Shown: positions 49,820-63,566 of the stretch, piece by piece | Layout: the number at the start of each line of letters is the position of its first letter | Position numbering within the stretch: position 1 is the first letter of the stretch | DNA from: Halomonas korlensis | GTDB lineage: Bacteria; Pseudomonadota; Gammaproteobacteria; Pseudomonadales; Halomonadaceae | Direction of reading: 5' to 3' | Length of the DNA stretch: 64,000 nt | NCBI RefSeq assembly: GCF_900116705.1 | Contig: NZ_FPBP01000001.1 | Location: 124,001-188,000 of the forward strand | Made by a program: the position numbers and the translations under genes | Notes under the pieces: generated by a model | The model's input: the letters and a program-made list of their open reading frames with translations, nothing else | Database searches by the model: none | What the model was told of the DNA's origin: nothing

Positions 49820-50815
49820 ATGCAGAAAATCGCCCGCCATGCGTTGACCCTGGGGATCTCACTCGCCGTGGCCGCTACCGCCAGCGCCGCCGATTTCGCC
49901 GACATGGAGCCCATCAACCTGCGCCTCGCCCATGTGGTCAACGAGCAGGATGGCTTTCATATCGCTGCCGAGAAGTTTCAGGAGTTGGTGGCAGAACGCA
50001 CCGAAGGTGCCGTGACCGTCGAAATCTTCCCCAACGCAAGCCTGGGAGACGAACGCACCCTGCTGGAAGGCATGCAGATCGGGACCGTCGACATGGGCGT
50101 GATCACCAACGGGCCGGTGGCCAACTTCGTCGAGGAAATGGCGGTGTTCGAACTGCCCTTTCTCTTCCCCTCGCCCGAGGCCGCCTATGAGGTGCTCGAC
50201 GGACCCATCGGCCAGGAATTGCTGGACAAGCTCGCCGAGGTCAACCTCAAGGGCCTGGCCTATGCGGAGCGCGGCTTTCGCAACCTCACCAACAGCGAGC
50301 GCGCGGTTACTACACCAGACGATATCGATGGCCTGCGCATTCGCGTAATGGAGAACCCCGTCTACGTCGACACCTTCCGCGAGCTTGGCGCCAATGCGGT
50401 TCCGATGGCCTGGACCGAGGCGCTGACCGCCATGCAACAGGGCACCATCGACGGCCAGGAAAACCCGGTCAATGTCATCCACTCCTTCAAGCTCGACGAG
50501 ACGCAGAGCCACATGACCCTGTCTCGCCACACCTACGCACCGGCAATCTTCGTCATGGGTATGCCCATCTGGAACCAGCTGCCCGAGGCCGCCCAGGAAG
50601 TGCTCGAAACGTCCGCCCAGGACGCCGCCGAGCACGAGCGACGCATGAATGCCGAAATGGAAGCCGAGCAGCTTGCCGAGCTGCGCGAGGCGGGCATGCA
50701 GATCGTTGACGAACCCGACATGGCCGCCTTCCAGCAAGCCGTCGCGCCGGTCTACGAGCAATACGGCGAGCAGTTCGGTGATTACCTGCCGCGCATCCAG
50801 GAGGCCCTGAAATAA
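49820..50815 (+). CDS. TRAP transporter substrate-binding protein (DctP family)
   Basis: This is a 331-residue periplasmic receptor. The signal peptide ends at A-T-A-S-A-A (about residue 23). E-I-F-P-N-A-S-L-G near 71 and the Arg in G-L-R-I-R-V-M near 172 match DctP proteins, in which that Arg binds the substrate carboxylate. AAGGA precedes the ATG. It is followed directly by the DctQ and DctM genes. The ligand is probably a C4-dicarboxylate, sugar acid or similar organic acid; it cannot be chosen from the sequence. Confidence 0.92.
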   Translation: MQKIARHALTLGISLAVAATASAADFADMEPINLRLAHVVNEQDGFHIAAEKFQELVAERTEGAVTVEIFPNASLGDERTLLEGMQIGTVDMGVITNGPVANFVEEMAVFELPFLFPSPEAAYEVLDGPIGQELLDKLAEVNLKGLAYAERGFRNLTNSERAVTTPDDIDGLRIRVMENPVYVDTFRELGANAVPMAWTEALTAMQQGTIDGQENPVNVIHSFKLDETQSHMTLSRHTYAPAIFVMGMPIWNQLPEAAQEVLETSAQDAAEHERRMNAEMEAEQLAELREAGMQIVDEPDMAAFQQAVAPVYEQYGEQFGDYLPRIQEALK

Positions 50816-51334
50816 GTGCTGCCCCTGCTCCAGCGCATCGAGCAGGGGATCGACGCCGTCACACGCCCGGTCGTTTTCCTGGCCATGGCGGCGCTGATTG
50901 GCGTGATCACCCTGCAGATCATTTCCCGCGTGTTCTTCTCCGCCGTCGGATGGACGGAGGAGGTCGCGCGCTTTCTGCTGGTATGGATCACCTTTCTCGC
51001 TGCCACCCTCGCCTACCGCCGCAGGCGCCATATCGCCGTGACCTTCGTGGTCGACGCCCTGCCTCCCAGGATCCGTCAGGCCAGCCGCCTCCTGGCGACC
51101 CTAGTGGTAGTGGCATTCATGATCTCGCTGATCGTCATCGGTTATCGATACATGCAGATTCAGAGCTTTCAGAAGTCTGCCTCGCTGCGCCTGTCGATGA
51201 CCTGGGTCTATGCCGTGATGCCGTTCTGCGCCGCCCTGATGGCCTGGACCTCGCTGGTCGATCTCGTCTCGTTGGTACATAGCGGTCGATACGCCACGGT
51301 GAACGACCCCGATAGCGACGCACACGACCCATGA
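50816..51334 (+). CDS. TRAP transporter small permease (DctQ family)
   Basis: This is a 172-residue protein with four hydrophobic segments and F-L-L-V-W-I-T-F-L-A-A near residue 45, a DctQ signature. It begins at a GTG immediately after the dctP stop and ends with a 4-base overlap with dctM, so the three are translationally linked. Confidence 0.9.
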   Translation: MLPLLQRIEQGIDAVTRPVVFLAMAALIGVITLQIISRVFFSAVGWTEEVARFLLVWITFLAATLAYRRRRHIAVTFVVDALPPRIRQASRLLATLVVVAFMISLIVIGYRYMQIQSFQKSASLRLSMTWVYAVMPFCAALMAWTSLVDLVSLVHSGRYATVNDPDSDAHDP

Positions 51335-52590
51335 CCGCCCTGCTCTTCGCTTGCTTTCTCGGCTTCATGTTGCTCGGCGTGCCCATCGCGCTGACCATCG
51401 GCGCCAGCGCAATGATCGCCCTGACAGCCCAGGGAACCCCCCTGATGGTGGTGACCCAGCAGATGTTCCAGGGCATCAACTCCTTCGCCCTGGTCGCCGT
51501 GCCGATGTTCATTCTCGCCGGCGACCTGATGGCCCAGGGCAAGGTCAGCGAGAAACTCGTCGATTTCGCTGACTCGCTGTTCGGCTTCCTCAAGGGGGGC
51601 CTGTCGATCGTCTCGGTACTGGCGGGCATGTTCTTCGCCGCCATTTCCGGCTCAGGGGCCGCCACCACCGCCGCCGTGGGCTCGAGCCTGGTGCCCGAGC
51701 TGCGCAAGAAAGGCTATGACCCCGCCTCCGCCGCGAGCCTGATTGCCGCCAGCGGCACCATCGGCGTGGTCATTCCGCCCTCGGTCCCCATGATCATCTA
51801 TGCGGTGATCGCCCAGCAATCGGTATCGCAGCTGTTTCTCAGCGGTTTCCTGCCTGGCCTGGCCATGGGGGTGGGGCTGGCGACCATCTCCATCGTCCAG
51901 GCCTACCGGCGTAACTACCCGCGAGGCACCGCCTTCTCGCCGGCGACCATCTGGCGCACCTTGAAGAGCGCCAGTTGGGGACTGATGACTCCGGTGATCA
52001 TCCTTGGCGGTATCTTTTCGGGTGTCTTCACGCCCAGCGAGGCCGCGGTCGTCGCGGTGAACTACGCGCTGCTGGTATCGCTGTTTGTCTACCGTGACCT
52101 GACGCTACCCGATGTCTATCGCATCCTGATTCGCTCGGCGGTCACCACCTCGGTGATCATGCTGGTGATCGCCACCTCGGCCGTGCTGAGCTGGACCCTG
52201 TCCAGCTGGCAAGTGCCCGGGGCCATCGCCTCGGCGGTCCTGTCGTTCTCCACTGACCCCTATGTCATCATGCTGCTGGTGGTAGGCGTCATCCTGCTGA
52301 CCGGCGTGTTCATCGAGACAGCCAGTGCGCTGATCATTCTCACGCCGGTACTGCTGCCGCTGGTGTCTCGTATCGGCATCGACCCGATTCATTTCGGGCT
52401 TATCATCGTGGTGGGACTGGCGATCGGCATGATCACCCCTCCCGTCGCGATCAATCTGTATGTGGCCTCGTCGGTCACTCGACTGCCGCTGGAGCGTATC
52501 ACTCGCGCGATCATCCCCTATTTATTGGGGTTGATCGTGGTACTGCTGCTGGTAGTTTATGTCCCGATACTGCTGGGCCTCTCCGGCTAA
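51331..52590 (+). CDS. TRAP transporter large permease (DctM family)
   Basis: This is a 419-residue protein with 11-12 hydrophobic segments. V-A-V-P-M-F-I-L-A-G-D-L-M near residue 51, A-A-I-S-G-S-G-A-A-T-T-A-A-V-G near 106 and P-P-S-V-P-M-I-I-Y near 150 are diagnostic of the DctM family. The start ATG overlaps the dctQ stop (ATGA). Confidence 0.94.
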   Translation: MTALLFACFLGFMLLGVPIALTIGASAMIALTAQGTPLMVVTQQMFQGINSFALVAVPMFILAGDLMAQGKVSEKLVDFADSLFGFLKGGLSIVSVLAGMFFAAISGSGAATTAAVGSSLVPELRKKGYDPASAASLIAASGTIGVVIPPSVPMIIYAVIAQQSVSQLFLSGFLPGLAMGVGLATISIVQAYRRNYPRGTAFSPATIWRTLKSASWGLMTPVIILGGIFSGVFTPSEAAVVAVNYALLVSLFVYRDLTLPDVYRILIRSAVTTSVIMLVIATSAVLSWTLSSWQVPGAIASAVLSFSTDPYVIMLLVVGVILLTGVFIETASALIILTPVLLPLVSRIGIDPIHFGLIIVVGLAIGMITPPVAINLYVASSVTRLPLERITRAIIPYLLGLIVVLLLVVYVPILLGLSG

Positions 52591-53501: not shown

Positions 53502-54440
53502 TTACTTCCTGCCCCTCGGTTTGCGAGGCGGGTTTGCACCCTGCTGACGAGGCCCCGGCGAGCGGGAGGTTTTCGCCGGCTGGACCGCTGACTTCCGGGG
53601 TTTGGGTGTCTTGCGCTTCGCCACCTTGCCGACACCTGGCTTGCCCGAGCTGCCCTTGGCGTCCTGACCTCCCTTGCGTCGGGCCGACCGGCGGCTGGTG
53701 TCCTCGGCCTCGGAAGCGGAATGCTCCGTCAGGGAGAGGATCGTCGACACCTCTTTTGCCGTCAGATCCCGCCAGTCCCCAGGCGCCAGCCCCTTGAGCG
53801 ACACATTCATGATGCGGATGCGCTCGAGCTTCACCACCTCATAGCCGAACACCTCGCACATGCGGCGTATCTGGCGGTTCAGTCCCTGGACCAGGATGAT
53901 ATTGAAGACGAACCGAGACTCCTTGACCACCCGGCACTTGCGGGTGACTTCACCCAGGATCGGCACACCCCCACCCATGCCGGCGATAAACTCATCAGTG
54001 ATCGGCTTGTTGACGGTGACCCGATACTCCTTCTCGTGCTGGTTGCTCGCGCGCAGGATGCGATTGACTAGGTCGCCGTTGTTGGTCAGGAAGATCAGCC
54101 CTTGGGAATCCTTGTCCAGCCGGCCGATGGGAAATATCCGCGCGCCGTGCTTGACGAAGTCGACGATATTGGCCTTTTCGCCGGGTTCCGTGGTGCTGAC
54201 GATGCCCACCGGCTTGTTGAGCGCGATGAACACCAGGTCCTCTTCTTCCAGCTCCAGCGGCTCGATGACCTGGCCGTTGACCTTCACCACACTGCCCGCG
54301 ACGACCTGGTCACCCGGGGTGGCGCGCTTGCCGTCGATCCGGACATTGCCCTGTTCGACGTAGCGGTCCGCCTCCCGTCGGGAGCATAGCCCGCTCTCGC
54401 TGATGTATTTATTGATCCGTTTCGAGAGGGTCTGGGCCAT
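53502..54440 (-). CDS. rluF: 23S rRNA pseudouridine synthase RluF
   Basis: This is a 312-residue enzyme. The S4 domain (residues 1-65, [18 protein letters not shown]) is followed by the RsuA-type catalytic domain with [10 protein letters not shown] near residue 105, where the Asp is catalytic. It follows E. coli RluF (U2604) closely, including G-V-P-I-L-G and [12 protein letters not shown] basic Lys/Pro/Arg-rich tail covers about residues 245-312. The frame is open to 54482; ATG at 54440 is the family start. Confidence 0.93.
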
Positions 54441-54773
54441 GGCACACGTCCGGGATGGGATAGGAAAAAGCCGTGGTCGCACGGCACGTTGCTACCTCAC
54501 ACTACAACAGTACTTGAACTTGTGAGGCCTTCCACAGAAGCAGGGATTGTCGTGAGTGATTATGCAATCGCCATCCAGGCAGGTCCATCATCGGCCCGGC
54601 TTGGAATCTCGCGCGTATCGATGGGCCGCCAACGCTTCAGGTTGCCACTCACGTGGGTTATCACCCTCTTACGCTCATCATCTTGTCCTGGGTCACTGCA
54701 GTGCAGCATGGAGTATGCTACACCAGTAGCCTTGACAGCGGTGACAGCGATGCTCAGAGCCGGAGGTAACAGG
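54441..54773. other. Divergent rluF-ATPase intergenic region
   Basis: This stretch of 333 bases holds no convincing gene. The plus-strand ATPase frame is open through much of it, but without a ribosome-binding site or family character. A small palindrome CACTGCAGTG is near 54692-54701. Promoters for both genes must lie here; none was assigned. Confidence 0.5.
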
Positions 54774-57533
54774 ATGCCCGAGCGAAAGCCCCATGAACGC
54801 CCCAACTGGCATGCCATGACGTCTGACGAGGCGTTGGGAAACCTCGAGAGTTCACTCAAAGGTCTGAGCAGCTCAGAGGCCGAGGCGAGACTGACTCAGT
54901 ACGGACCCAATGAGCTTCAACAGCAAAAGGGCCGACCCTGGTGGCAGCGCCTGCTGGAGCAGTTCAACAATATTCTGATACTGATCCTCATTTTCGCTGC
55001 TGCGGCCAGCCTGTGGCTGGGAGAAGCGTTCGACGCGGGCGCTATCCTCGGCGTGGTGATCATCATTGCGCTGATCGGCTTCTTTCAGGAGGGCAAGGCC
55101 GAGCAGGCGCTTGAGAGCATACGACAGATGCTCACGCCACAGGCCCAGGTGATGCGTGACGGCAAACGCGAGACCGTGCCTGCCGAGAACCTGGTACCAG
55201 GTGACATCGTACTGATCGAAAGCGGCGATCGGGTACCGGCCGACCTTCGACTCGTGGAAGCCAGGCGCTTTCGCAGCGAAGAGGCCTCGCTGACCGGGGA
55301 GTCAACCCCGGTGGACAAGGACACGGCGCCTGTAGAGGCAGCGGCCGACCTGGCCGACCGCAGCAGCATGGCCTACGCCAGCACCATCGTTGTCCAGGGC
55401 AACGCCCGGGGCCTGGTGGTGGAAACCGGCATAAACACTCAGATCGGACGCATTTCGGAGATGCTGCGCGGGGTCGAGCAGCTCAAGACTCCGCTACTGC
55501 GTCAGATCGACCGCGCCGGCCGGGTCCTCGCCATCTTCATTCTTGTGACTGCCGCCCTGACGGGTGTCATCGGTGCCCTGGTACACGGCCAACCGCTGGG
55601 CGACATGTTCATGGCGGCCGTGGGCCTGGCCGTGGCCGCCATCCCCGAAGGCCTGCCGGCCATCGTCACCATCGGTTTGGCGCTCGGAGTCCAGGCCATG
55701 GCCAGGCGCAATGCCATCATCCGACGGCTGCCCGCGGTAGAGACGCTAGGCTCCATCTCCACCATCTTCTCGGACAAGACCGGCACCCTGACCCGTAACG
55801 AGATGACTGCCCAGGCGATCTGGCTGCCGCAAGGCGAGCTCCGCATCAAGGGCATCGGCTTCGCCCCGGAGGGCAGCTTCCATCGGATTGGCAACAGCGA
55901 GCCGGCGGCAACGGCGCTGAATCTCGACGAGAACCACGCCCTGCGCCACTTCCTCAAGGTCGGGGTGCTGTGTAACGACGCCGAACTCGCCGAAGAGGAC
56001 GGTCGTTGGCAGATACACGGCGATCCTACCGAGGGCGCCCTGGTGGTTGCTGCGGCCAAGGTGGGCCTGACCACCGGGAAGCTGCGCGGCGACCACGACC
56101 GTAAGGATGCTATTCCCTTCGAGTCCGAGCGCAAATACATGGCCACTCTCCATGAAGTGGATGGCGAACCGTTGCTGCTGGTCAAGGGCGCCCCGGACCG
56201 TCTGCTGGAGATGTGTCACCGTGTCCGCGAAGACGGCCAGGACAGCGAACTGGATGTGGCTCTGTGGGAGGAGCGTATCCATGACCTCTCCGCACGCGGC
56301 CTGCGGGTACTGGCGCTGGCCGAGAAGCCGATTCACGACGTCCATGAGCTAGAGGACGAGCACGCCGAGGAAGGATTGGTGCTGCTGGGCCTGGTGGGGC
56401 TGCTCGACCCGCCCCGAGACGAGGCCATCGAGGCGGTCAAGGACTGCCAGACTGCCGGCATCCGTCCGGTGATGATCACCGGAGATCATGCGGTAACGGC
56501 GCTAGCCATCGCCAGGCAGCTGGGCTTCGTCCACACCGAGCGGGCCATCAGCGGCCGCGAGATCGAGGCGATGTCCGACGCAGAGCTCGAGGCGATCATC
56601 CTTGAAGTGGACGTTTTTGCCCGCGCTGCGCCTGAACACAAGCTGCGCCTGGTCAAGGCGATGCAGGCCCGCGGCGGCATCTGCGCCATGACCGGTGACG
56701 GGGTCAACGACGGCCCGGCACTCAAGCGCGCCGACGTCGGCGTGGCCATGGGTATTCAAGGCACCGAGGCCGCCAAGGAGGCCGCCGAGATGGTGCTCGC
56801 TGACGACAACTTTGCCACCATCGTCGGGGCCATCCGCGAAGGCCGCAAGGTCTACGACAACATCCGCAAGACCATCACTTTCCTGCTGCCCACCAACGGC
56901 GGCCAAGGCCTAGCCATCATGCTTGCCGTGCTGGCCGGCACCACCCTGCCGGTGACACCGCTGCAGGCGCTATGGGTGAATATGGTGGTGGCGGTGACCC
57001 TGGGTCTCGCTCTGGCCTTTGAGGACGCCGAGCCCGACATCATGCAGCGCCGGCCACGGGACCCCGACGCCGCCCTGCTCGACCTCTTCCTGCTGTGGCG
57101 CGTCGTCTTCGTCTCGCTGCTGCTGCTCGCCGGCGTGTTCGGCATGTTCTCCTGGATTCTCTACGGCCAGGGCGGCAGTATCGAGCTGGCCCGCGCCGGC
57201 GCGGTGAACATGCTGGTGACGGGCAGCGCCGCTTACCTGATCAACAGCCGCTTCCTGCTCAACAGCACGCTGTCGATCCCCGGCATCTTCGGCAGCCGCC
57301 CGGTGTGGATCGCCATCGGCCTGGTCATGGTCCTGCAGCTTGCCTGGACATACCTGCCCTTCATGCAGTTGACCTTCGGTAGCGCCGCGCTGGGTCTTGG
57401 CCACTGGACGGTGATCCTGACCGGCAGCATGGCGATCTACCTCGTCGTCGAATTGGAGAAGCGGATCCTGCGCACCCGAGCCCACGGCAGGCGGAGTCGA
57501 GCACCGCACGGGCATTATCCACGCCTGCGGTAA
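54774..57533 (+). CDS. P2-type cation-transporting ATPase, copy 1
   Basis: This is a 919-residue P-type ATPase. The order is an N-terminal cation-ATPase domain (W-H-A-M at about residue 12), A domain with T-G-E-S, M4 motif I-P-E-G-L-P (290-295), phosphorylated Asp334 in D-K-T-G-T-L-T, hinge T-G-D-G-V-N-D-G-P near 640-648, and a C-terminal set of about six helices. In M5 the segment P-T-N-G-G-Q has Gln711 where SERCA has a cation-binding Glu, and in M6 N-x-x-x-A has Ala740 where SERCA has Asp800. Na+, K+ or Ca2+ could be carried. The ATG at 54774 follows GGAGG. Confidence 0.85.
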   Translation: MPERKPHERPNWHAMTSDEALGNLESSLKGLSSSEAEARLTQYGPNELQQQKGRPWWQRLLEQFNNILILILIFAAAASLWLGEAFDAGAILGVVIIIALIGFFQEGKAEQALESIRQMLTPQAQVMRDGKRETVPAENLVPGDIVLIESGDRVPADLRLVEARRFRSEEASLTGESTPVDKDTAPVEAAADLADRSSMAYASTIVVQGNARGLVVETGINTQIGRISEMLRGVEQLKTPLLRQIDRAGRVLAIFILVTAALTGVIGALVHGQPLGDMFMAAVGLAVAAIPEGLPAIVTIGLALGVQAMARRNAIIRRLPAVETLGSISTIFSDKTGTLTRNEMTAQAIWLPQGELRIKGIGFAPEGSFHRIGNSEPAATALNLDENHALRHFLKVGVLCNDAELAEEDGRWQIHGDPTEGALVVAAAKVGLTTGKLRGDHDRKDAIPFESERKYMATLHEVDGEPLLLVKGAPDRLLEMCHRVREDGQDSELDVALWEERIHDLSARGLRVLALAEKPIHDVHELEDEHAEEGLVLLGLVGLLDPPRDEAIEAVKDCQTAGIRPVMITGDHAVTALAIARQLGFVHTERAISGREIEAMSDAELEAIILEVDVFARAAPEHKLRLVKAMQARGGICAMTGDGVNDGPALKRADVGVAMGIQGTEAAKEAAEMVLADDNFATIVGAIREGRKVYDNIRKTITFLLPTNGGQGLAIMLAVLAGTTLPVTPLQALWVNMVVAVTLGLALAFEDAEPDIMQRRPRDPDAALLDLFLLWRVVFVSLLLLAGVFGMFSWILYGQGGSIELARAGAVNMLVTGSAAYLINSRFLLNSTLSIPGIFGSRPVWIAIGLVMVLQLAWTYLPFMQLTFGSAALGLGHWTVILTGSMAIYLVVELEKRILRTRAHGRRSRAPHGHYPRLR

Positions 57534-57625
57534 CAACTCCACAACGCACGCGACCTGCAGCGCGGCGAGACCTGTGCTACTCCTAGATCATCATGGAAGA
57601 TAATGGATGACAAGGGAGAAACGGC

Positions 57626-60436
57626 ATGCCCGATCACGACGGCAAGGGAGATAAGGAAGAGAAGGAGCGGACACCCTGGCACGCCATGGCCGGCGACGAG
57701 GTGCTCGAGCGCCTCGACTCCCGTAAAGAAGGCCTCAGCGACGACGAAGCCAGAGAGCGGCTCAGCCAGCACGGCCCCAACCGGCTGCAGCAGGACGAAG
57801 GCCAGCCCTGGTGGCGTCGCCTGCTTGCCCAGTTCAATAATGTTCTGATGCTAATCCTGATCGTCGCGGCAATCGCCAGCCTGCTGCTGGGGAAGAGCCT
57901 CGACGCCGCGGTGATACTCGCCGTTGTGGTCATCATCGCCCTGATCGGTTTTTTCCAGGAGGGCAAGGCCGAAAAGGCGCTGGACAGCATACGGGACATG
58001 CTCTCGCCCCAGGCTTCGGCCCGCCGTGGCGGGCGCGAGACGAAGATCGACGCCGAGGAGCTCGTGCCCGGCGACATCGTGCACTTGGAGAGTGGCGACC
58101 GCGTGCCCGCCGACATCCGACTGCTCGAGGCCAAGCGGCTCAACGCCGAGGAAGCCGCGCTGACCGGGGAGTCCACGCCGGTTGACAAGAGCGAAGAGCC
58201 GGTGGAGGAGGATGCCGACCTAGCCGATCGCAGCGCCATGCTGTTCGCCGGCACCATCGTCGCCAAGGGCAACGCCACCGGCGTAGTGGTACAGACCGGG
58301 GCACAGACCGAGATCGGGCGCATTTCCGAGATGCTGCGCGGGGTCGAGCAGCTCAAGACACCGCTGGTGCAGCAGCTCGATCGTGCCGGACGCATTCTCG
58401 CCATCTTCATCCTTGTCGCCGCGGTCCTGACCGGCGCCATCGGCGTGCTGGTGCATGAACAGCCCTGGACAGAAATGTTCATGGCAAGCGTGGGGCTCGC
58501 CGTCGCCGCCATCCCCGAGGGGCTGCCGGCCATCGTCACCATCTCCCTGGCCCTGGGCGTGCAGACCATGGCGAGCAAGAACGCCATCGTTCGGCGCCTG
58601 CCAGCGGTGGAGACCCTCGGCTCCATCTCCACCATCTTCTCCGACAAGACCGGTACGCTGACGCGCAACGAGATGACCGCTCAGGCCATCTGGCTAGCCG
58701 AGCGCGAGATACGCCTGTCGGGCATCGGCTTCGCCCCCGAGGGCAAGCTGTACGACCCCGAACGCAGCGACAGCGAGGAGGACGCCGAGGCGCTCTCGCT
58801 GGAGGAGGTTCCCGCCCTCTCCCGCTTCCTGCTCGCCGGCGCGCTGTGCAACGACGCCGAGCTTGTCCACGAGGAGGAGGAGTGGTCCATCGACGGCGAC
58901 CCCACCGAGGGCGCGCTGGTGGTCGCGGCGGCCAAGGCCGGGCTGGATATCGGCGACCTGCGCAACGAGCATGAGCGTCGCGACGCCATTCCCTTCGACT
59001 CCGAGCGCAAGTACATGGCCACCCTCAACGACTTCGACGAGGGGCCACGCCTGCTGGTCAAGGGCGCACCGGATCGCCTGCTTGACATGTGCGACAAGGC
59101 GCGTGGCGACGAAGGCGATAGCGAGCTGGATCGCGATACCTGGCAGGGGCGCATTCACGACCTCTCCTCGCGCGGCCTGCGGGTGCTCGCGTTGGCCGAG
59201 AAGGAGACACCCGACACCAGCCGCGAGCTCGACGACGACGAGGTCGAGCACGGCCTGGTACTGCTCGGCCTCGTCGGGCTTCTCGACCCACCCCGCGAGG
59301 CCGCCATAGAGGCCGTCGAGAACTGCCAGCAGGCCGGCATCCGGCCGGTGATGGTGACCGGCGATCACGCCGTCACGGCCTGCGCCATCGCCGATCAGCT
59401 CGGTTTCAAGCGCACCGACCGCGCCCTGAGCGGCCATGAGATCGAGGAGATGAGCGACGAGGAGCTGGAGCGCGAGATCACCGAGGTCGACGTCTTCGCC
59501 CGGGCCGCGCCGGAGCACAAGCTGCGGCTGGTGCAGGCGATGCAAGCGCGGGGCGGCATCTGCGCCATGACCGGCGACGGCGTCAACGACGGCCCCGCAC
59601 TCAAGCGAGCCGACGTGGGCGTGGCCATGGGCATCCAGGGCACCGAGGCGGCCAAGGAGGCCGCCGAGATGGTGCTGACCGACGACAACTTCGCCACCAT
59701 CGTCGGCGCCGTGGCCGAAGGGCGCAAGGTCTACGACAACATCCGTAAGTCGATCACTTTCATCCTGCCCACCAACGGCGCCGAGAGCCTGGCGATACTG
59801 CTCGCCATCCTGGCGGGCTTCACGCTGCCCATCACCGGCCTGCAGGTGCTGTGGGTCAACATGATCACTGCCGTGACCCTCGGCGTGGCCCTGGTCTTCG
59901 AGCTGGCCGAGGCGAACGTGATGCAGCGTCAGCCCCGCGATCCGGCCGCCCCGCTGCTCGACCTCTTCATGCTGTGGCGGGTGATCTTCGTCTCGATCCT
60001 GATGGTGCTGTGCATCTTCGGCATCTTCCTCTGGATCCTGCACGGCCAGGGCGGCAGCATCGAGCTGGCCCGCGCCGGTGCGGTCAACATGCTGGTGGCG
60101 GCCGAGGTCGTCTACCTGATCAACAGCCGCTTTCTCATCGACAGCAGCCTGTCGCTGAAGGGCATCCTCGGCAGCAGGGCCGTGCTCCTGGCCATCGGGC
60201 TGGTGGCAGTCTTCCAGCTGGCCTGGACCTACCTCCCCTTCATGCAGGCCATCTTCGGCACCGCCGCCCTCTCCCTGCTTCACTGGGTCGTGATCGCCGC
60301 CGCCAGCATCGTGATCTTTCTTATCGTGGAGGGTGAGAAGGGGCTGCTGCGGCGCCGCGAGGCCGCTCGTCGGCGAGACGCGGCCACTTCTGATTCGGGA
60401 GGCGACGCAAAGAAGAAGCCCGCCGCGACCAGCTGA
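57626..60436 (+). CDS. P2-type cation-transporting ATPase, copy 2
   Basis: This 936-residue ATPase is clearly related to the preceding one, 92 bases upstream on the same strand. It has I-P-E-G-L-P in M4, phosphorylated Asp340, T-G-D-G-V-N-D-G-P and the full set of helices. In M5 P-T-N-G-A-E keeps Glu720, unlike copy 1, and M6 N-M-I-T-A again has Ala749 at the Asp position. The C terminus is basic. GGGAGA precedes the ATG. It looks like a tandem duplication that has diverged in ion-site residues. Its stop abuts the stop of hrpB with no gap. Confidence 0.85.
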   Translation: MPDHDGKGDKEEKERTPWHAMAGDEVLERLDSRKEGLSDDEARERLSQHGPNRLQQDEGQPWWRRLLAQFNNVLMLILIVAAIASLLLGKSLDAAVILAVVVIIALIGFFQEGKAEKALDSIRDMLSPQASARRGGRETKIDAEELVPGDIVHLESGDRVPADIRLLEAKRLNAEEAALTGESTPVDKSEEPVEEDADLADRSAMLFAGTIVAKGNATGVVVQTGAQTEIGRISEMLRGVEQLKTPLVQQLDRAGRILAIFILVAAVLTGAIGVLVHEQPWTEMFMASVGLAVAAIPEGLPAIVTISLALGVQTMASKNAIVRRLPAVETLGSISTIFSDKTGTLTRNEMTAQAIWLAEREIRLSGIGFAPEGKLYDPERSDSEEDAEALSLEEVPALSRFLLAGALCNDAELVHEEEEWSIDGDPTEGALVVAAAKAGLDIGDLRNEHERRDAIPFDSERKYMATLNDFDEGPRLLVKGAPDRLLDMCDKARGDEGDSELDRDTWQGRIHDLSSRGLRVLALAEKETPDTSRELDDDEVEHGLVLLGLVGLLDPPREAAIEAVENCQQAGIRPVMVTGDHAVTACAIADQLGFKRTDRALSGHEIEEMSDEELEREITEVDVFARAAPEHKLRLVQAMQARGGICAMTGDGVNDGPALKRADVGVAMGIQGTEAAKEAAEMVLTDDNFATIVGAVAEGRKVYDNIRKSITFILPTNGAESLAILLAILAGFTLPITGLQVLWVNMITAVTLGVALVFELAEANVMQRQPRDPAAPLLDLFMLWRVIFVSILMVLCIFGIFLWILHGQGGSIELARAGAVNMLVAAEVVYLINSRFLIDSSLSLKGILGSRAVLLAIGLVAVFQLAWTYLPFMQAIFGTAALSLLHWVVIAAASIVIFLIVEGEKGLLRRREAARRRDAATSDSGGDAKKKPAATS

Positions 60437-62887
60437 TCACCGCCTCGATCGGGTCCGTGCCGTAGCCACGGCGCTGAGCGGGTCCTCCGGCCAGGGGTGT
60501 TTCGGATAGCGGCCGCGCATTTCCTTGCGCACCTGCGGGTAGCCATTACGCCAGAAACTCTCCAGATCACGAGTCACCTGCAACGGCCGGCGTGCCGGCG
60601 ACAACAGGTGCACCAGCACCGGGACTTGCCCTCGTACCAGGCGCGGCGTCGTCCGCCAGCCGAACAGCTCCTGAAGCTTGGCGGCCAGCACTGGCTCGCC
60701 ATCCTGCAGGCAGGGCGTATAGTCCACCTGCACGAACGACCCGCTGGGCACGGGCAAGCGTTCGGGGGCTAGCTCCTCGAGGCAAGCGCGCCGGGATCCG
60801 TCCAGGCTATCCCGCAGGAAGCGCCCCAGCGGCAACCGGTCGAGGGCATCGAGCCGGTTCTCCCGATCGAGATAGAGGGCCAGCCAGGTATCGAGGCGAT
60901 CCAGGAGCGAGGCCGTCGACCAGTCGGGCCAGGCATCACCTTCGATGCGCCGCAACAGCGCCATCCGTCCGCGCAGCTGATCGTCTGCCGGCGTGAAAGC
61001 CAGTGTGCCACGTCGACGCACCGCTTCGAGCAGTGCTTGATGCACCGCCTCGCGCGGCATCTTCTGTAGCGGCTTGCGCGCCAGGACTACCGCCCCCAGT
61101 CCACGCACCTGCTCGCCAAGCAGCTTGCCCTCGCTGTCCGACCATTCGAGGCGGGTGCGCCACTCGAGTGACTCGGGATACAAGGCCTCAAGCCGCCGGG
61201 AAGACAGCGACACGGCGCGAAAGATGCGCGCCTCACCGTTTTGCCCGTCGAGCTCGACCGCCACCAGCAATTCGCTATGGGCCAAGGGGGTGTCTTCCGG
61301 CAGCGTCGCAAGCCCACCGCCGACCAGGCGAAAGCAACCCGGCTCGAGCCGTTGGCCGACGCGCTCCGGATACGCCAACGCCAGCAACTCTCCCAGCGGG
61401 GCCAGACTGGCAACCTCCAGCTCACAACCGGCAATTCGCGCCAGCCGTCGCGCATCTCGCTGCCATGGCCCGTTGGATCGCTCCGCCAGGCGTGATTGGA
61501 GGGCGCGTTCCAGGTCGCGTTCGCCGTCCAGTTCGCGGGTTTCAAGGGTGGCCACCACGGCGCAGGCCAGCGGCCGGGCCTGGAGATCAACGGCCCGCGT
61601 CAGCATCACGGCCAGCCGCGGGTGGGTTGGCCAGCGCACACAGGCGCACCCTAGCGCGGTAAGGTGAAAGGCGTCATCGAGCACGCTGAGACGCTGCAGC
61701 AACTCTCGCCCTGCCGCCAAGGCCGCAGCGGGCGGCGGCGTCACCCAGGCCAGGGCCGCCGGATCGCTGATGCCCCAGCGCGCCAGCTCGAAGGCCAACG
61801 GCGCCAGATCGGCCTGGCGGATCTCCGGCTCGCCGTGGGGGATCAGCGGCTGCTCCTCGGCCCACAGGCGAAGACAGAGACCGGGGCCCTGGCGACCAGC
61901 CCGGCCACGGCGCTGATCGGCGCTGGCGCGGTTGACCCGCCGGGTTTCCAGTCGCGTGAGCCCGGTGCGCGGCTGATACACCGGCACCCGTTCCTGCCCG
62001 GCGTCGATCACGATGCGCACGCCATCCACGGTCACGCTCGATTCCGCGATAGCGGTGGCCAGCACGACGCGACGACGACCCTCGGGATCGCGACGCAAGG
62101 CGCGACGCTGCTCGGCCAGCGACAGGCGACCGTGCAACTCCCTCACTTCGAACGACGCTGTCTGGACATCGAGCTGCCGGGCCAGGCGGCGTATTTCACC
62201 CACCCCAGGGAGAATCACCAGCGCATCGCCGCCTTCGAAGCCGTCAGACTGCAAGGCCTCATTCACTACCGCGGCCTGCTGACGGGCGGTGTCCTCGCGG
62301 CTGTTCAAGGGCCGATAGCGGGTTTCGACGGCAAAGCTGCGTCCCGGGCAGTCAATGATCGGCGTCGACTCGCCGAGTACCGCAAGCAGGCTGGGCACAT
62401 CCAGGGTCGCCGACATCACCAGCAGTCGCAGATCCTCACGCAGCCCCTGCTGGGCATCCAAGGCCAATGCCAGCCCGAGATCGGCCTCAAGGCTGCGCTC
62501 ATGAAACTCGTCAAAGACGAGCCCGGCCACGCCCTCAAGCAGCGGGTCGTCCTGCAACAGTCGCGTCAATACGCCCTGAGTGACCACTTCGAGACGTGTG
62601 GACGGTCCCGTCCGGCTTTCGCCGCGCATGCGATACCCAACGGTTTCCCCCACACGCTCGCCGAGCTGCTCTGCCATGTAACCGGCTGCCAGACGGGCGG
62701 CCACTCGGCGCGGCTCCAGCAGCAACAGCTTGCCGCTGCGACACCAGGGCTCGTCGAGCAGGGCCAGCGGCACCCGCGTGGTCTTGCCGGCACCAGGGGC
62801 GGCGATCAACAGGGCACGTGTATGTTCGGCGAGTACCGACCGGATGGCCTGGAGCCGGGAATCAATGGGCAGCGCCATCATTGCCAT
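60437..62887 (-). CDS. hrpB: ATP-dependent helicase HrpB
   Basis: This is an 816-residue DEAH-box helicase; E. coli HrpB has 809. Motif I is A-P-G-A-G-K-T-T-R, motif II D-E-F-H-E-R-S, motif III S-A-T-L-D and motif VI Q-R-R-G-R-A-G-R. The C-terminal HrpB domain follows. The biological substrate is not well known. No strong ribosome-binding site marks the start: the ATGs at 62887, 62881 and 62878 are close together, and a GTG at 62923 overlaps the TetR gene. The first of the ATGs was chosen. Confidence 0.93.
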   Translation of the reverse strand: MAMMALPIDSRLQAIRSVLAEHTRALLIAAPGAGKTTRVPLALLDEPWCRSGKLLLLEPRRVAARLAAGYMAEQLGERVGETVGYRMRGESRTGPSTRLEVVTQGVLTRLLQDDPLLEGVAGLVFDEFHERSLEADLGLALALDAQQGLREDLRLLVMSATLDVPSLLAVLGESTPIIDCPGRSFAVETRYRPLNSREDTARQQAAVVNEALQSDGFEGGDALVILPGVGEIRRLARQLDVQTASFEVRELHGRLSLAEQRRALRRDPEGRRRVVLATAIAESSVTVDGVRIVIDAGQERVPVYQPRTGLTRLETRRVNRASADQRRGRAGRQGPGLCLRLWAEEQPLIPHGEPEIRQADLAPLAFELARWGISDPAALAWVTPPPAAALAAGRELLQRLSVLDDAFHLTALGCACVRWPTHPRLAVMLTRAVDLQARPLACAVVATLETRELDGERDLERALQSRLAERSNGPWQRDARRLARIAGCELEVASLAPLGELLALAYPERVGQRLEPGCFRLVGGGLATLPEDTPLAHSELLVAVELDGQNGEARIFRAVSLSSRRLEALYPESLEWRTRLEWSDSEGKLLGEQVRGLGAVVLARKPLQKMPREAVHQALLEAVRRRGTLAFTPADDQLRGRMALLRRIEGDAWPDWSTASLLDRLDTWLALYLDRENRLDALDRLPLGRFLRDSLDGSRRACLEELAPERLPVPSGSFVQVDYTPCLQDGEPVLAAKLQELFGWRTTPRLVRGQVPVLVHLLSPARRPLQVTRDLESFWRNGYPQVRKEMRGRYPKHPWPEDPLSAVATARTRSRR

Positions 62888-62897
62888 GTCGAGCGCA

Positions 62898-63566
62898 TCA
62901 CGCCTGGCGAGGCGTGACGCCACATCCCTTGAGAATTACTTGGGTCAGAAAGCCGGTAATGGCCTCCACATCGCTGTCCGTCAGCGCGTCCTTGTCGGTG
63001 ATACCGAGTACCTGGGCCTCGAAATCGGCGTAGTGCTGGGTAGCCGACCAGATCAGGAAGATCAGCCAGACCGGATCAACCGGGTCCATCAGCCCACGCG
63101 CGCTCCATTGCTCGAAAATCCGCGCCCGCGCCTTCACCCAATCGCGCAGTTCGCCGCGTAGATAGTCCTGGAGAAAGGGCGCGCCGCCGAGGATCTCGGC
63201 GGCGAAAAGCCGCGAGCCTTCTGGATGGCGACGAGACAGCTGCATCTTGCTGCGGATGAAACTTTCCAGGACTTCCGCCGGGTCGTCATCCACCGAGATA
63301 TCATCGAGTAAGGCATTCCAGCGCGCCATCATGCGCTCCAGCAGGCGGACGTAGAGGCCACGCTTGCTGCCCATGTAATACAGGACGTTCGATTTGGGCA
63401 GACCCGCTTCATGGGCGATGGCCTGCAGGCTGGCGCCACGAAAGCCGTGCTGGGCGAAGATCCGTTCGGCGGCGGCGAGGATAGCTCGCTCGTTGCGCTC
63501 GCGGATCGCCCCGTTGGCTTCGCCTTTTTCTTCGCCCGTATCTTGGGGCACCTTGCATAGCGTCAT
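62898..63566 (-). CDS. TetR-family regulator, RutR-like
   Basis: This is a 222-residue TetR protein. The helix-turn-helix is at about residues 25-72 (F-R-G-A-S-L-Q-A-I-A-H-E-A-G-L-P-K-S-N-V-L-Y-Y as separate blocks in two helices), and the C-terminal ligand domain ends with A-T-Q-H-Y-A-D-F and I-T-G-F, close to RutR. RutR is a pyrimidine/purine regulator that binds uracil and thymine. The gene is divergent from xdhA, and a RutR-like palindrome lies between them. GAGG is before the ATG at 63566. Confidence 0.82.
   Translation of the reverse strand: MTLCKVPQDTGEEKGEANGAIRERNERAILAAAERIFAQHGFRGASLQAIAHEAGLPKSNVLYYMGSKRGLYVRLLERMMARWNALLDDISVDDDPAEVLESFIRSKMQLSRRHPEGSRLFAAEILGGAPFLQDYLRGELRDWVKARARIFEQWSARGLMDPVDPVWLIFLIWSATQHYADFEAQVLGITDKDALTDSDVEAITGFLTQVILKGCGVTPRQA

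What the first reader, a model, noticed from the sequence alone, without database searches (positions are those of the whole stretch)
54774..60436. Tandem P2-type ATPases with different ion-site residues
Two related pumps lie 92 bases apart. Both keep I-P-E-G-L-P in M4 and the Asn of M6 but have Ala where SERCA has Asp800 in M6. In M5 copy 1 has Gln711 where SERCA has Glu771, while copy 2 keeps Glu720. Loss of acidic ligands argues against ordinary Ca2+ transport and suggests monovalent ions such as Na+ or K+, with different specificity for each copy. For a halophile, a paired primary Na+ or K+ pump would be of real interest.
Basis: partly seen in the sequence, partly recalled or inferred. Interest (0 to 1): 0.6.

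Follow-up and report, generated by a model that had tools for sequence, protein, structure and literature searches.

The report
Paired cation pumps with divergent ion sites
Two neighbouring membrane pumps of a salt-adapted bacterium belong to a widespread, poorly understood bacterial pump family; they are an old, maintained pair in which one partner has lost most of the charged groups that hold the ion in well-studied calcium pumps.

Summary
In detail: two P2-type ATPases 92 bases apart, 70.5% identical, with Ala at SERCA Asp800 in both and Gln711/Glu720 at Glu771. Two further site differences were missed: Thr799 is Val/Thr, Glu908 is Ser/Glu. Copy 1 keeps one of SERCA's four site carboxylates (Glu309); copy 2 keeps three, the published pattern of mycobacterial CtpF.

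Missing Asp800 is not special to this pair: it marks a large bacterial branch (no acid in 105 rows) that includes PA1429, apart from SERCA, LMCA1, PMCA, SPCA and Na,K-ATPase. CtpF is published as a Ca2+ pump (weak assay), so this loss alone does not argue for monovalent ions.

The pair is old: 10 of 90 genomes of the genus have it, always one Gln-type and one Glu-type. In a branch of 73 sequences, 60 are Q/V with no acid at 908 and 13 are E/T/E. All nine columns fixed differently (90% rule) lie in M5-M9. One Glu-type subclade has Gln at Glu309.

Best reading: paralogues specialised for different ions or stoichiometries. Copy 1 has site I dismantled as in PMCA and lacks Asp800; a single monovalent ion is plausible, unproven.

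The parts
54774..57533 (+). copy 1, Gln-type P2 ATPase (919 aa)
   Evidence: ORF and ribosome-binding site; Pfam and NCBIfam; AlphaFold2 model mean pLDDT 84.9; the 50 listed PDB fold matches are all P2 pumps
57626..60436 (+). copy 2, Glu-type P2 ATPase (936 aa)
   Evidence: ORF, Pfam and NCBIfam, nearest PDB sequences LMCA1 and SPCA1
55647..55649 (+). copy 1 Glu292 (SERCA Glu309, M4 IPEGLP): the only one of SERCA's four site carboxylates left
56904..56906 (+). copy 1 Gln711 (SERCA Glu771, M5)
   Evidence: Q in 60 of 60 Gln-type rows of the branch defined by the tree
56988..56993 (+). copy 1 Val739-Ala740 (SERCA Thr799-Asp800, M6)
58517..58519 (+). copy 2 Glu298 (SERCA Glu309, M4)
59783..59785 (+). 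copy 2 Glu720 (SERCA Glu771, M5)
59867..59872 (+). copy 2 Thr748-Ala749 (SERCA Thr799-Asp800, M6)
60104..60106 (+). copy 2 Glu827 (SERCA Glu908, M8)
53502..54482 (-). RluF-like pseudouridine synthase, upstream neighbour also found in relatives
   Evidence: Pfam PseudoU_synth_2 and S4; synteny; the name RluF is recalled
60437..62923 (-). HrpB helicase, downstream neighbour also found in relatives
   Evidence: Pfam HrpB_C; synteny

Best explanation
Shown: the two genes are an old, maintained paralogue pair of a bacterial P2 ATPase clade that lacks an acid at SERCA position 800. Copy 2 keeps the other site carboxylates (Glu309, Glu771, Glu908) and has the pattern published for CtpF. Copy 1 has the side-chain ligands of SERCA site I replaced (E771Q, T799V, E908S) besides Asp800, so of SERCA's four carboxylates it keeps only Glu309. 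Inferred: both are ATP-driven exporters that run the normal phospho-Asp cycle. Copy 2 most likely exports a divalent ion, Ca2+ being the first guess. Copy 1 most likely carries one ion per ATP at the site II position, and with one carboxylate a monovalent ion (Na+, or H+) is more likely than Ca2+. The pair would thus export two different cations, or one cation at two stoichiometries, from one locus when membrane-potential-driven antiporters fail.
For: Ligand differences: in a tree of 99 family-level rows the branch that holds both window copies has 73 rows, which split into 60 Gln-types, all N/Q/N/V/A with S50, C9 or T1 at 908, and 13 Glu-types, all N/E/N/T/A/E; each type is one branch. All 9 columns fixed differently at the 90% level lie in M5-M9, positions 711-845 of 919 (Fisher p 9e-7 against equally conserved columns elsewhere; 2e-5 when the two columns used to label the groups are left out). 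Catalytic motifs kept in 61 sequences with the Gln-type pattern: TGES and DKTGTLT in 60 (the miss, L199, is a fragment), KGAP and TGDGVND in 61, PEG[LM]P in 59 (misses L199 and L184). Pair in 10 of 90 genomes of the genus, always one of each type. E771 and E908 tend to change together in the wider clade: E/E 57 and Q/Q, Q/S or Q/C 31 of 113 rows; 11 independent pairs, same direction 5.9, opposite 0.1, no difference 5.0, median p 0.031. PMCA2 site I is disabled at the same positions, T799M and E771A, leaving E309/N796/D800 equivalents (PMC12488499, passage). CtpF: all Ca2+ ligands kept except D800 and A305, Ca2+-stimulated ATPase (PMC7525011, passages). Na,K-ATPase with sites I and III disrupted still binds Na+ at site II and is phosphorylated (PMC10812997, abstract).
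Against: No transport data for a Gln-type or Glu-type pump were found. Ligand counting is a weak predictor of ion identity. At the 80% level only 11 of 16 fixed differences lie in 700-900. The E771/E908 coupling is borderline (p range 0.008 to 0.375), and 6 rows are Q/E and 6 are E/Q. The CtpF Ca2+ claim rests on an assay with Km 1.34 mM, Mg2+ stimulation as well, and 100 mM KCl in the buffer, so copy 2 as a Ca2+ pump leans on weak ground. The own genome has 5 genes with Na_Ca_ex repeats and one NQR2/RnfD-type gene, so neither ion needs these pumps. The best profile matches of copy 1 itself are Ca2+ pump models.
Confidence: 0.45

Rival explanations
1. Both copies are Ca2+ (or Mn2+) exporters; copy 1 has merely become a one-ion pump by losing site I, as PMCA, SPCA and LMCA1 did, and the two differ in affinity or stoichiometry.
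For: Nearest solved structures by sequence are LMCA1 and SPCA1 and the AlphaFold model's best fold matches are Ca2+ pumps; CtpF reported as Ca2+ ATPase without D800; PA1429 reported to affect Ca2+ homeostasis (PMC5770612 citing Guragain 2013, passage).
Against: All five characterised pumps aligned keep an acid at 800 (SERCA, LMCA1, PMCA1, SPCA1, Na,K-ATPase); copy 1 lacks it and has one carboxylate only. Both copies fall outside the Ca2+ pump branches and below every NCBIfam equivalog cut-off they were compared with.
Confidence: 0.3
2. Both copies are monovalent pumps (Na+ or K+), a paired primary Na+/K+ system of a halophile.
For: Neutral residue at 800 in both; salt-adapted host (ectoine synthase); Gln at 908, as in Na,K-ATPase, occurs in the clade.
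Against: The clade is found in many bacteria whose names give no sign of halophily, and 22 of 90 genomes of the genus have no PF00689 match at E <= 0.001. Copy 2 keeps Glu309, Glu771, Glu908 and Thr799. CtpF vesicles were reported not to respond to Na+ or K+ (with the KCl caveat).
Confidence: 0.15
3. Copy 1 is not a transporter on its own but a partner or regulator of copy 2.
For: Conserved tandem arrangement in both gene orders.
Against: Of 63 genomes of the genus whose pumps I examined, 45 have a Gln-type without a Glu-type, 10 have both and 3 have a Glu-type alone; the catalytic motifs are kept.
Confidence: 0.07

Closest known systems
Mycobacterial CtpF (P2 ATPase, reported Ca2+ pump)
   Same: Published as having all SERCA Ca2+ ligands except D800 and A305 (PMC7525011, passages), which is the copy 2 pattern apart from A305.
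   Different: I did not obtain its sequence; copy 1 further lacks E771, T799 and E908.
PA1429 type (Pseudomonas aeruginosa; identified by its place next to lasR)
   Same: 52.7% identical to copy 2; neutral residue (Ser) at 800; N/E/N/T/S/E.
   Different: Linked in print to quorum sensing and Ca2+ homeostasis and listed among genes changed in a study with Anr in its title.
PMCA, SPCA, LMCA1 (one-site Ca2+ pumps)
   Same: Site I disabled: PMCA2 and SPCA1 at 771 and 799, LMCA1 by an Arg in the site I region; copy 1 is altered at 771, 799 and 908.
   Different: They keep an acid at 800; copy 1 does not.
SERCA
   Same: Fold (copy 1 model), catalytic motifs, E309, N768, N796; copy 2 also E771, T799, E908.
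   Different: D800 missing in both; separate branch.
Na,K-ATPase
   Same: P2 fold (copy 1 model).
   Different: Has Asp at both SERCA positions 796 and 800 where these have Asn and Ala.

Membership tests
P2-type ATPase (general) | TGES, PEGLP-type M4, DKTGT, KGAP, TGDGVND, Cation_ATPase_N and _C membrane regions | tested here: met
   fold of copy 1
Asp800-less (CtpF/PA1429-like) clade | non-acidic residue at SERCA 800 and position inside the supported branch | tested here: met
   SH-aLRT 100 for 105 rows in the full-length tree (residues recounted), 99 for 51 rows in the tree with characterised pumps
Asp800-less (CtpF/PA1429-like) clade | mycobacterial CtpF itself lies in the branch | not tested
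SERCA-type or PMR1-type Ca2+ ATPase (NCBIfam equivalogs TIGR01116, TIGR01522) | score over the curated cut-off | tested here: not met
   585 and 590 of 703 bits; 677 and 679 of 798 bits
PMCA-type Ca2+ ATPase (TIGR01517) | score over the curated cut-off | tested here: not met
   425 and 454 of 507 bits
SERCA-type Ca2+ ATPase | acid at position 800 | tested here: not met
   Ala in both
Fungal-type Na+/K+ efflux ATPase (TIGR01523, P2D) | score over the curated cut-off | tested here: not met
   532 and 506 of 645 bits
Na,K-ATPase alpha (TIGR01106) | score over cut-off; acids at 796 and 800 | tested here: not met
   466 and 489 of 946 bits; Asn and Ala
Ca2+ pump by function | Ca2+-dependent phosphorylation and transport | not testable with these tools
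   needs biochemistry

The most novel reading that the evidence does not exclude
A P2 pump lineage that works with one, and in one genome none, of the four SERCA site carboxylates. Gln-types keep only Glu309. A Glu-type subclade (4 genes: in L066, L067, L068, L090) has Gln at Glu309 but keeps Glu771 and Glu908; so in the three of those genomes that have the pair (G140, G125, G148) the two ancestral ion sites are split between two neighbouring proteins, one keeping the site II Glu and the other the site I Glu pair. One further pump with the Gln-type C-terminal pattern (L184) has Gln at 309, Gln at 771, Ala at 800 and Ser at 908. Such pumps would need a new ion or a new charge-balancing scheme.
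Probability: 0.2. Interest if true: 0.75.

Novelty: new variant of a known kind. Interest (0 to 1): 0.5.

Why it matters
The ion of the Asp800-less bacterial P2 clade is open: its best-known reported member is called a Ca2+ pump on thin evidence. Here nature gives a matched pair, 70.5% identical, whose types differ at strictly conserved positions only in the M5-M9 membrane region, ion ligands included. That is a direct test bed for which ligands set ion choice and stoichiometry. [quoted passage not shown]

Tried and rejected
Asp800 loss as a special mark of this pair: rejected, clade-wide. Recent in-place duplication: rejected; the types are separate branches in the largest family-level tree (13 and 60 rows), the Glu-types are one branch with SH-aLRT 99, and the Gln-types are not rejected as one clade (p-AU 0.73). 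In the earlier quick trees the Glu-types stood as two branches at an unresolved fork. The two window copies are no nearer each other (70.5%) than each is to its own type. Degenerate copy 1: rejected by kept motifs. Shared anaerobic (FNR/Anr) control of the window pair: no box with at most 1 mismatch upstream in the window, the nearest candidate has 2. In relatives, 8 of 80 stretches (250 bases before to 150 bases after my chosen start) have one with at most 1 mismatch against 0.23 expected by single-base shuffling; several of the eight are close relatives of one another, and none is a Glu-type. Salt induction from papers: nothing on these genes seen. Prior description of this pair: not seen in the searches, which cover open-licence papers only and of which I saw listings and some passages. 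Rfam, PADLOC and PHROGs were not searched. Named CtpF sequence: not obtained. Maya-Hoyos 2019 and Guragain 2013 are not held and are cited only through other papers.

Rows dropped or picked: the 38 Gln-type rows and the 61 were picked by their residues at 771 and 799, so their uniformity there is partly by construction; therefore defines the branch by the tree and repeats the count, and leaves those two columns out of the Fisher test. Two short frames, L069 (520 aa) and L074 (499 aa), were dropped; three pumps of other families (L032, L040, L051) before the column count; L128 (669 aa); 17 Gln-type rows and six far rows; L069 (520 aa) and L205. L184 has the Gln-type pattern but falls outside the branch of 73. 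In one search only the best 30 matches became loci, and 29 were examined. All trees are quick searches.
Full report
What is there. The window holds two complete P2-type ATPase genes on the + strand, 54774-57533 and 57626-60436, 92 bases apart. Pfam finds the actuator, P, N and membrane parts in both. They are 70.5% identical. They are the only two genes of the 4.04-Mb genome that match Pfam Cation_ATPase_C, among nine matches to the P-type family PF00122. An AlphaFold2 model of copy 1 has mean pLDDT 84.9 and pTM 0.77. All 50 listed PDB fold matches are P2 pumps, first SPCA1 and SERCA in E1 states.

The residues. With SERCA1a as ruler (letters confirmed by PDB search), the site positions E309, N768, E771, N796, T799, D800, E908 read E, N, Q, N, V, A, S in copy 1 and E, N, E, N, T, A, E in copy 2. 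T799 and E908 are additional. So copy 1 keeps one of the four site carboxylates and copy 2 keeps three.

Asp800 is missing in a whole clade. In a tree of 113 proteins, 105 rows without an acid at 800 form one branch (SH-aLRT 100), next to a small Asn800 branch (4 rows) and apart from four Asp800 rows. In a second tree over the P domain and membrane part with SERCA, LMCA1, PMCA1, SPCA1 and Na,K-ATPase added (PMCA1 membrane part only), 51 such rows form one branch (SH-aLRT 99), apart from all five. Both trees are quick searches with a simple model. The clade includes the PA1429-type pump that sits next to lasR in a P. aeruginosa plasmid record. Named members of the sample include Azotobacter, Comamonas, Paraburkholderia and Bradyrhizobium, so the clade is not confined to halophiles. 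Published text says mycobacterial CtpF keeps all SERCA Ca2+ ligands except D800 and A305 (PMC7525011, passages). I could not place CtpF itself, because I did not obtain its sequence. A review lists CtpF next to Synechocystis Pma1 in its tree legend (PMC10654040, passages).

What is known of the ion in this clade. PMC7525011 (passages) reports that CtpF membrane ATPase rises with Ca2+ (Km 1.34 mM) and Mg2+ but not with Na+ or K+. Its buffer held 100 mM KCl while added salts were 0.2-3 mM, so the K+ test says little; that is my criticism. PA1429 is said to affect Ca2+ homeostasis (PMC5770612, passage, citing a paper that is not held).

The pair is old and kept. Of 90 held genomes of the genus, 68 have a PF00689 match at E <= 0.001 and 66 over the cut-off; in 10, two matches lie 2.8 to 2.9 kb apart. 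In a sample of 101 genomes of the family, the only such pair was the window's. I fetched the nine other pairs. Every pair has one Gln-type and one Glu-type, Gln first in seven genomes (window included) and Glu first in three. In G176 the Gln-type reads as two frames, so that pair is not intact. Of 63 genomes of the genus whose pumps I examined, 45 have a Gln-type without a Glu-type, 10 have both, 3 have a Glu-type alone (G108, G151, G166, the last 79% complete) and 5 have only other members (completeness). The two types are separate branches of 60 and 13 rows in the largest family-level tree, although two earlier quick trees left the Glu-types as two branches at an open fork. A single old duplication is the simplest history. 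The place between the pseudouridine synthase and hrpB recurs in relatives with one or two pumps.

The difference between the types is concentrated in the membrane part around the ion site. Defined by the tree and not by residues, the branch that holds both window copies has 73 rows: 60 with N768, Q771, N796, V799, A800 and S50, C9 or T1 at 908, and 13 with N, E, N, T, A, E. With 38 Gln-types and 13 Glu-types, nine columns are fixed differently at the 90% level, and all nine lie between residues 711 and 845 of 919, in M5-M9. Among columns conserved in both groups, 97 lie in 700-900 and 346 elsewhere (Fisher p 9e-7; 2e-5 without the two columns that served as labels). At the 80% level 11 of 16 lie there. 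Sequences are related, so the p-values overstate independence. In the wider clade E771 and E908 tend to change together: 57 rows E/E, 20 Q/Q, 10 Q/S, 1 Q/C, but also 6 Q/E and 6 E/Q of 113. In 11 independent pairs the second follows the first in 5.9, opposes it in 0.1 and does not differ in 5.0, median p 0.031, so this is suggestive only.

Outside the family. In 369 genomes of the class, 169 have a match at E <= 1e-150; the best listed outside the family is 56% identical to copy 1. Of 29 such loci examined, none has Ser, Cys or Thr at 908, one has Val at 799 with Gln at 908, and all 29 are neutral at 800. The full Gln-type pattern was seen only within the family in what I examined.

Glu309. 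Of 221 protein reads (some genes fetched twice), six (five genes) have PQGLP instead of PEGLP: four Glu-types (L066, L067, L068, L090) and L184, which has the Gln-type pattern in its C-terminal part. In L184 the stretch 241-300 resembles the Glu-type of L066 (82%) more than its Gln-type (65%), while the C-terminal part is Gln-like, and L184 falls outside the branch of 73. It may be a gene-conversion mosaic or a separate line. L184 has none of the four site acids. [quoted passage not shown]

Mechanism. SERCA site I is built from N768, E771, T799, D800 and E908; site II from E309, N796, D800 and M4 backbone (established knowledge). In PMCA2, site I is disabled by T799M and E771A while the E309, N796 and D800 equivalents hold one Ca2+ (PMC12488499, passage); LMCA1 has an Arg in the site I region (PMC11977196, passage). 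Copy 1 is altered at the same positions and lacks D800 as well, so site II has one carboxylate. A single monovalent ion is then the simplest guess; this is inference. Copy 2 keeps the site I acids and Glu309, which would suit a divalent ion, or two monovalent ones. That Na,K-ATPase with sites I and III disrupted is still phosphorylated with Na+ at site II (PMC10812997, abstract) shows that a one-ion cycle can start in principle.

Physiology. The genome also has five genes with paired Na_Ca_ex repeats (ten matches), one NQR2/RnfD-type gene and an ectoine synthase gene. The pumps are therefore probably accessory. Some relatives have FNR/Anr-like boxes near the start (8 of 80 with at most one mismatch, 0.23 expected by single-base shuffling), and PA1429 appears in a gene list of a study with Anr in its title (PMC8087004, passage), but the window has no such box near the pair. 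ATP-driven export under low oxygen is a fair idea for the clade and untested for this pair.

Verdict. The family is known in outline; the Gln-type and the Glu309-to-Gln variants are new variants as far as my searches show.

Noticed in passing
L184:955-3726 (+), genome G180: A pump with the Gln-type C-terminal pattern, IPQGLP in M4 and no site carboxylate at all; residues 241-300 are nearer a Glu-type (82%) than a Gln-type (65%), and it falls outside the branch of both types.
   Followed up: partly
L066, L067, L068, L090 (Glu-type genes): A Glu-type subclade with Gln in place of SERCA Glu309 while Glu771 and Glu908 are kept.
   Followed up: partly
L052, L084, L093 and five others, near the start of the pump gene: FNR/Anr-like boxes (three perfect, five with one mismatch) in relatives, absent in the window pair and in Glu-types.
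   Followed up: partly
L056, L057 (plasmid records), L055: Universal stress protein gene directly upstream of the pump in Legionella and Klebsiella plasmid records, small Hsp20 gene downstream in Cereibacter.
   Followed up: no
L054 (NZ_CP131792.1): An 847-kb P. aeruginosa plasmid record carries the lasR-rsaL-lasI region with the PA1429-type pump, normally chromosomal as I recall.
   Followed up: no
L163, L166, L169, L170: A small sister branch with G/A/N/T/N/Q at the site positions (Asn at 800), another ion-site pattern.
   Followed up: no
L069 and L216, genome G176: The Gln-type of this pair reads as two separate frames beside a full-length Glu-type.
   Followed up: no
window 49820-52590 (+): TRAP transporter genes (DctP and DctM by Pfam; a small ORF between them) lie upstream; DctM is also found near the pump locus in L035, L066 and L067.
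   Followed up: no
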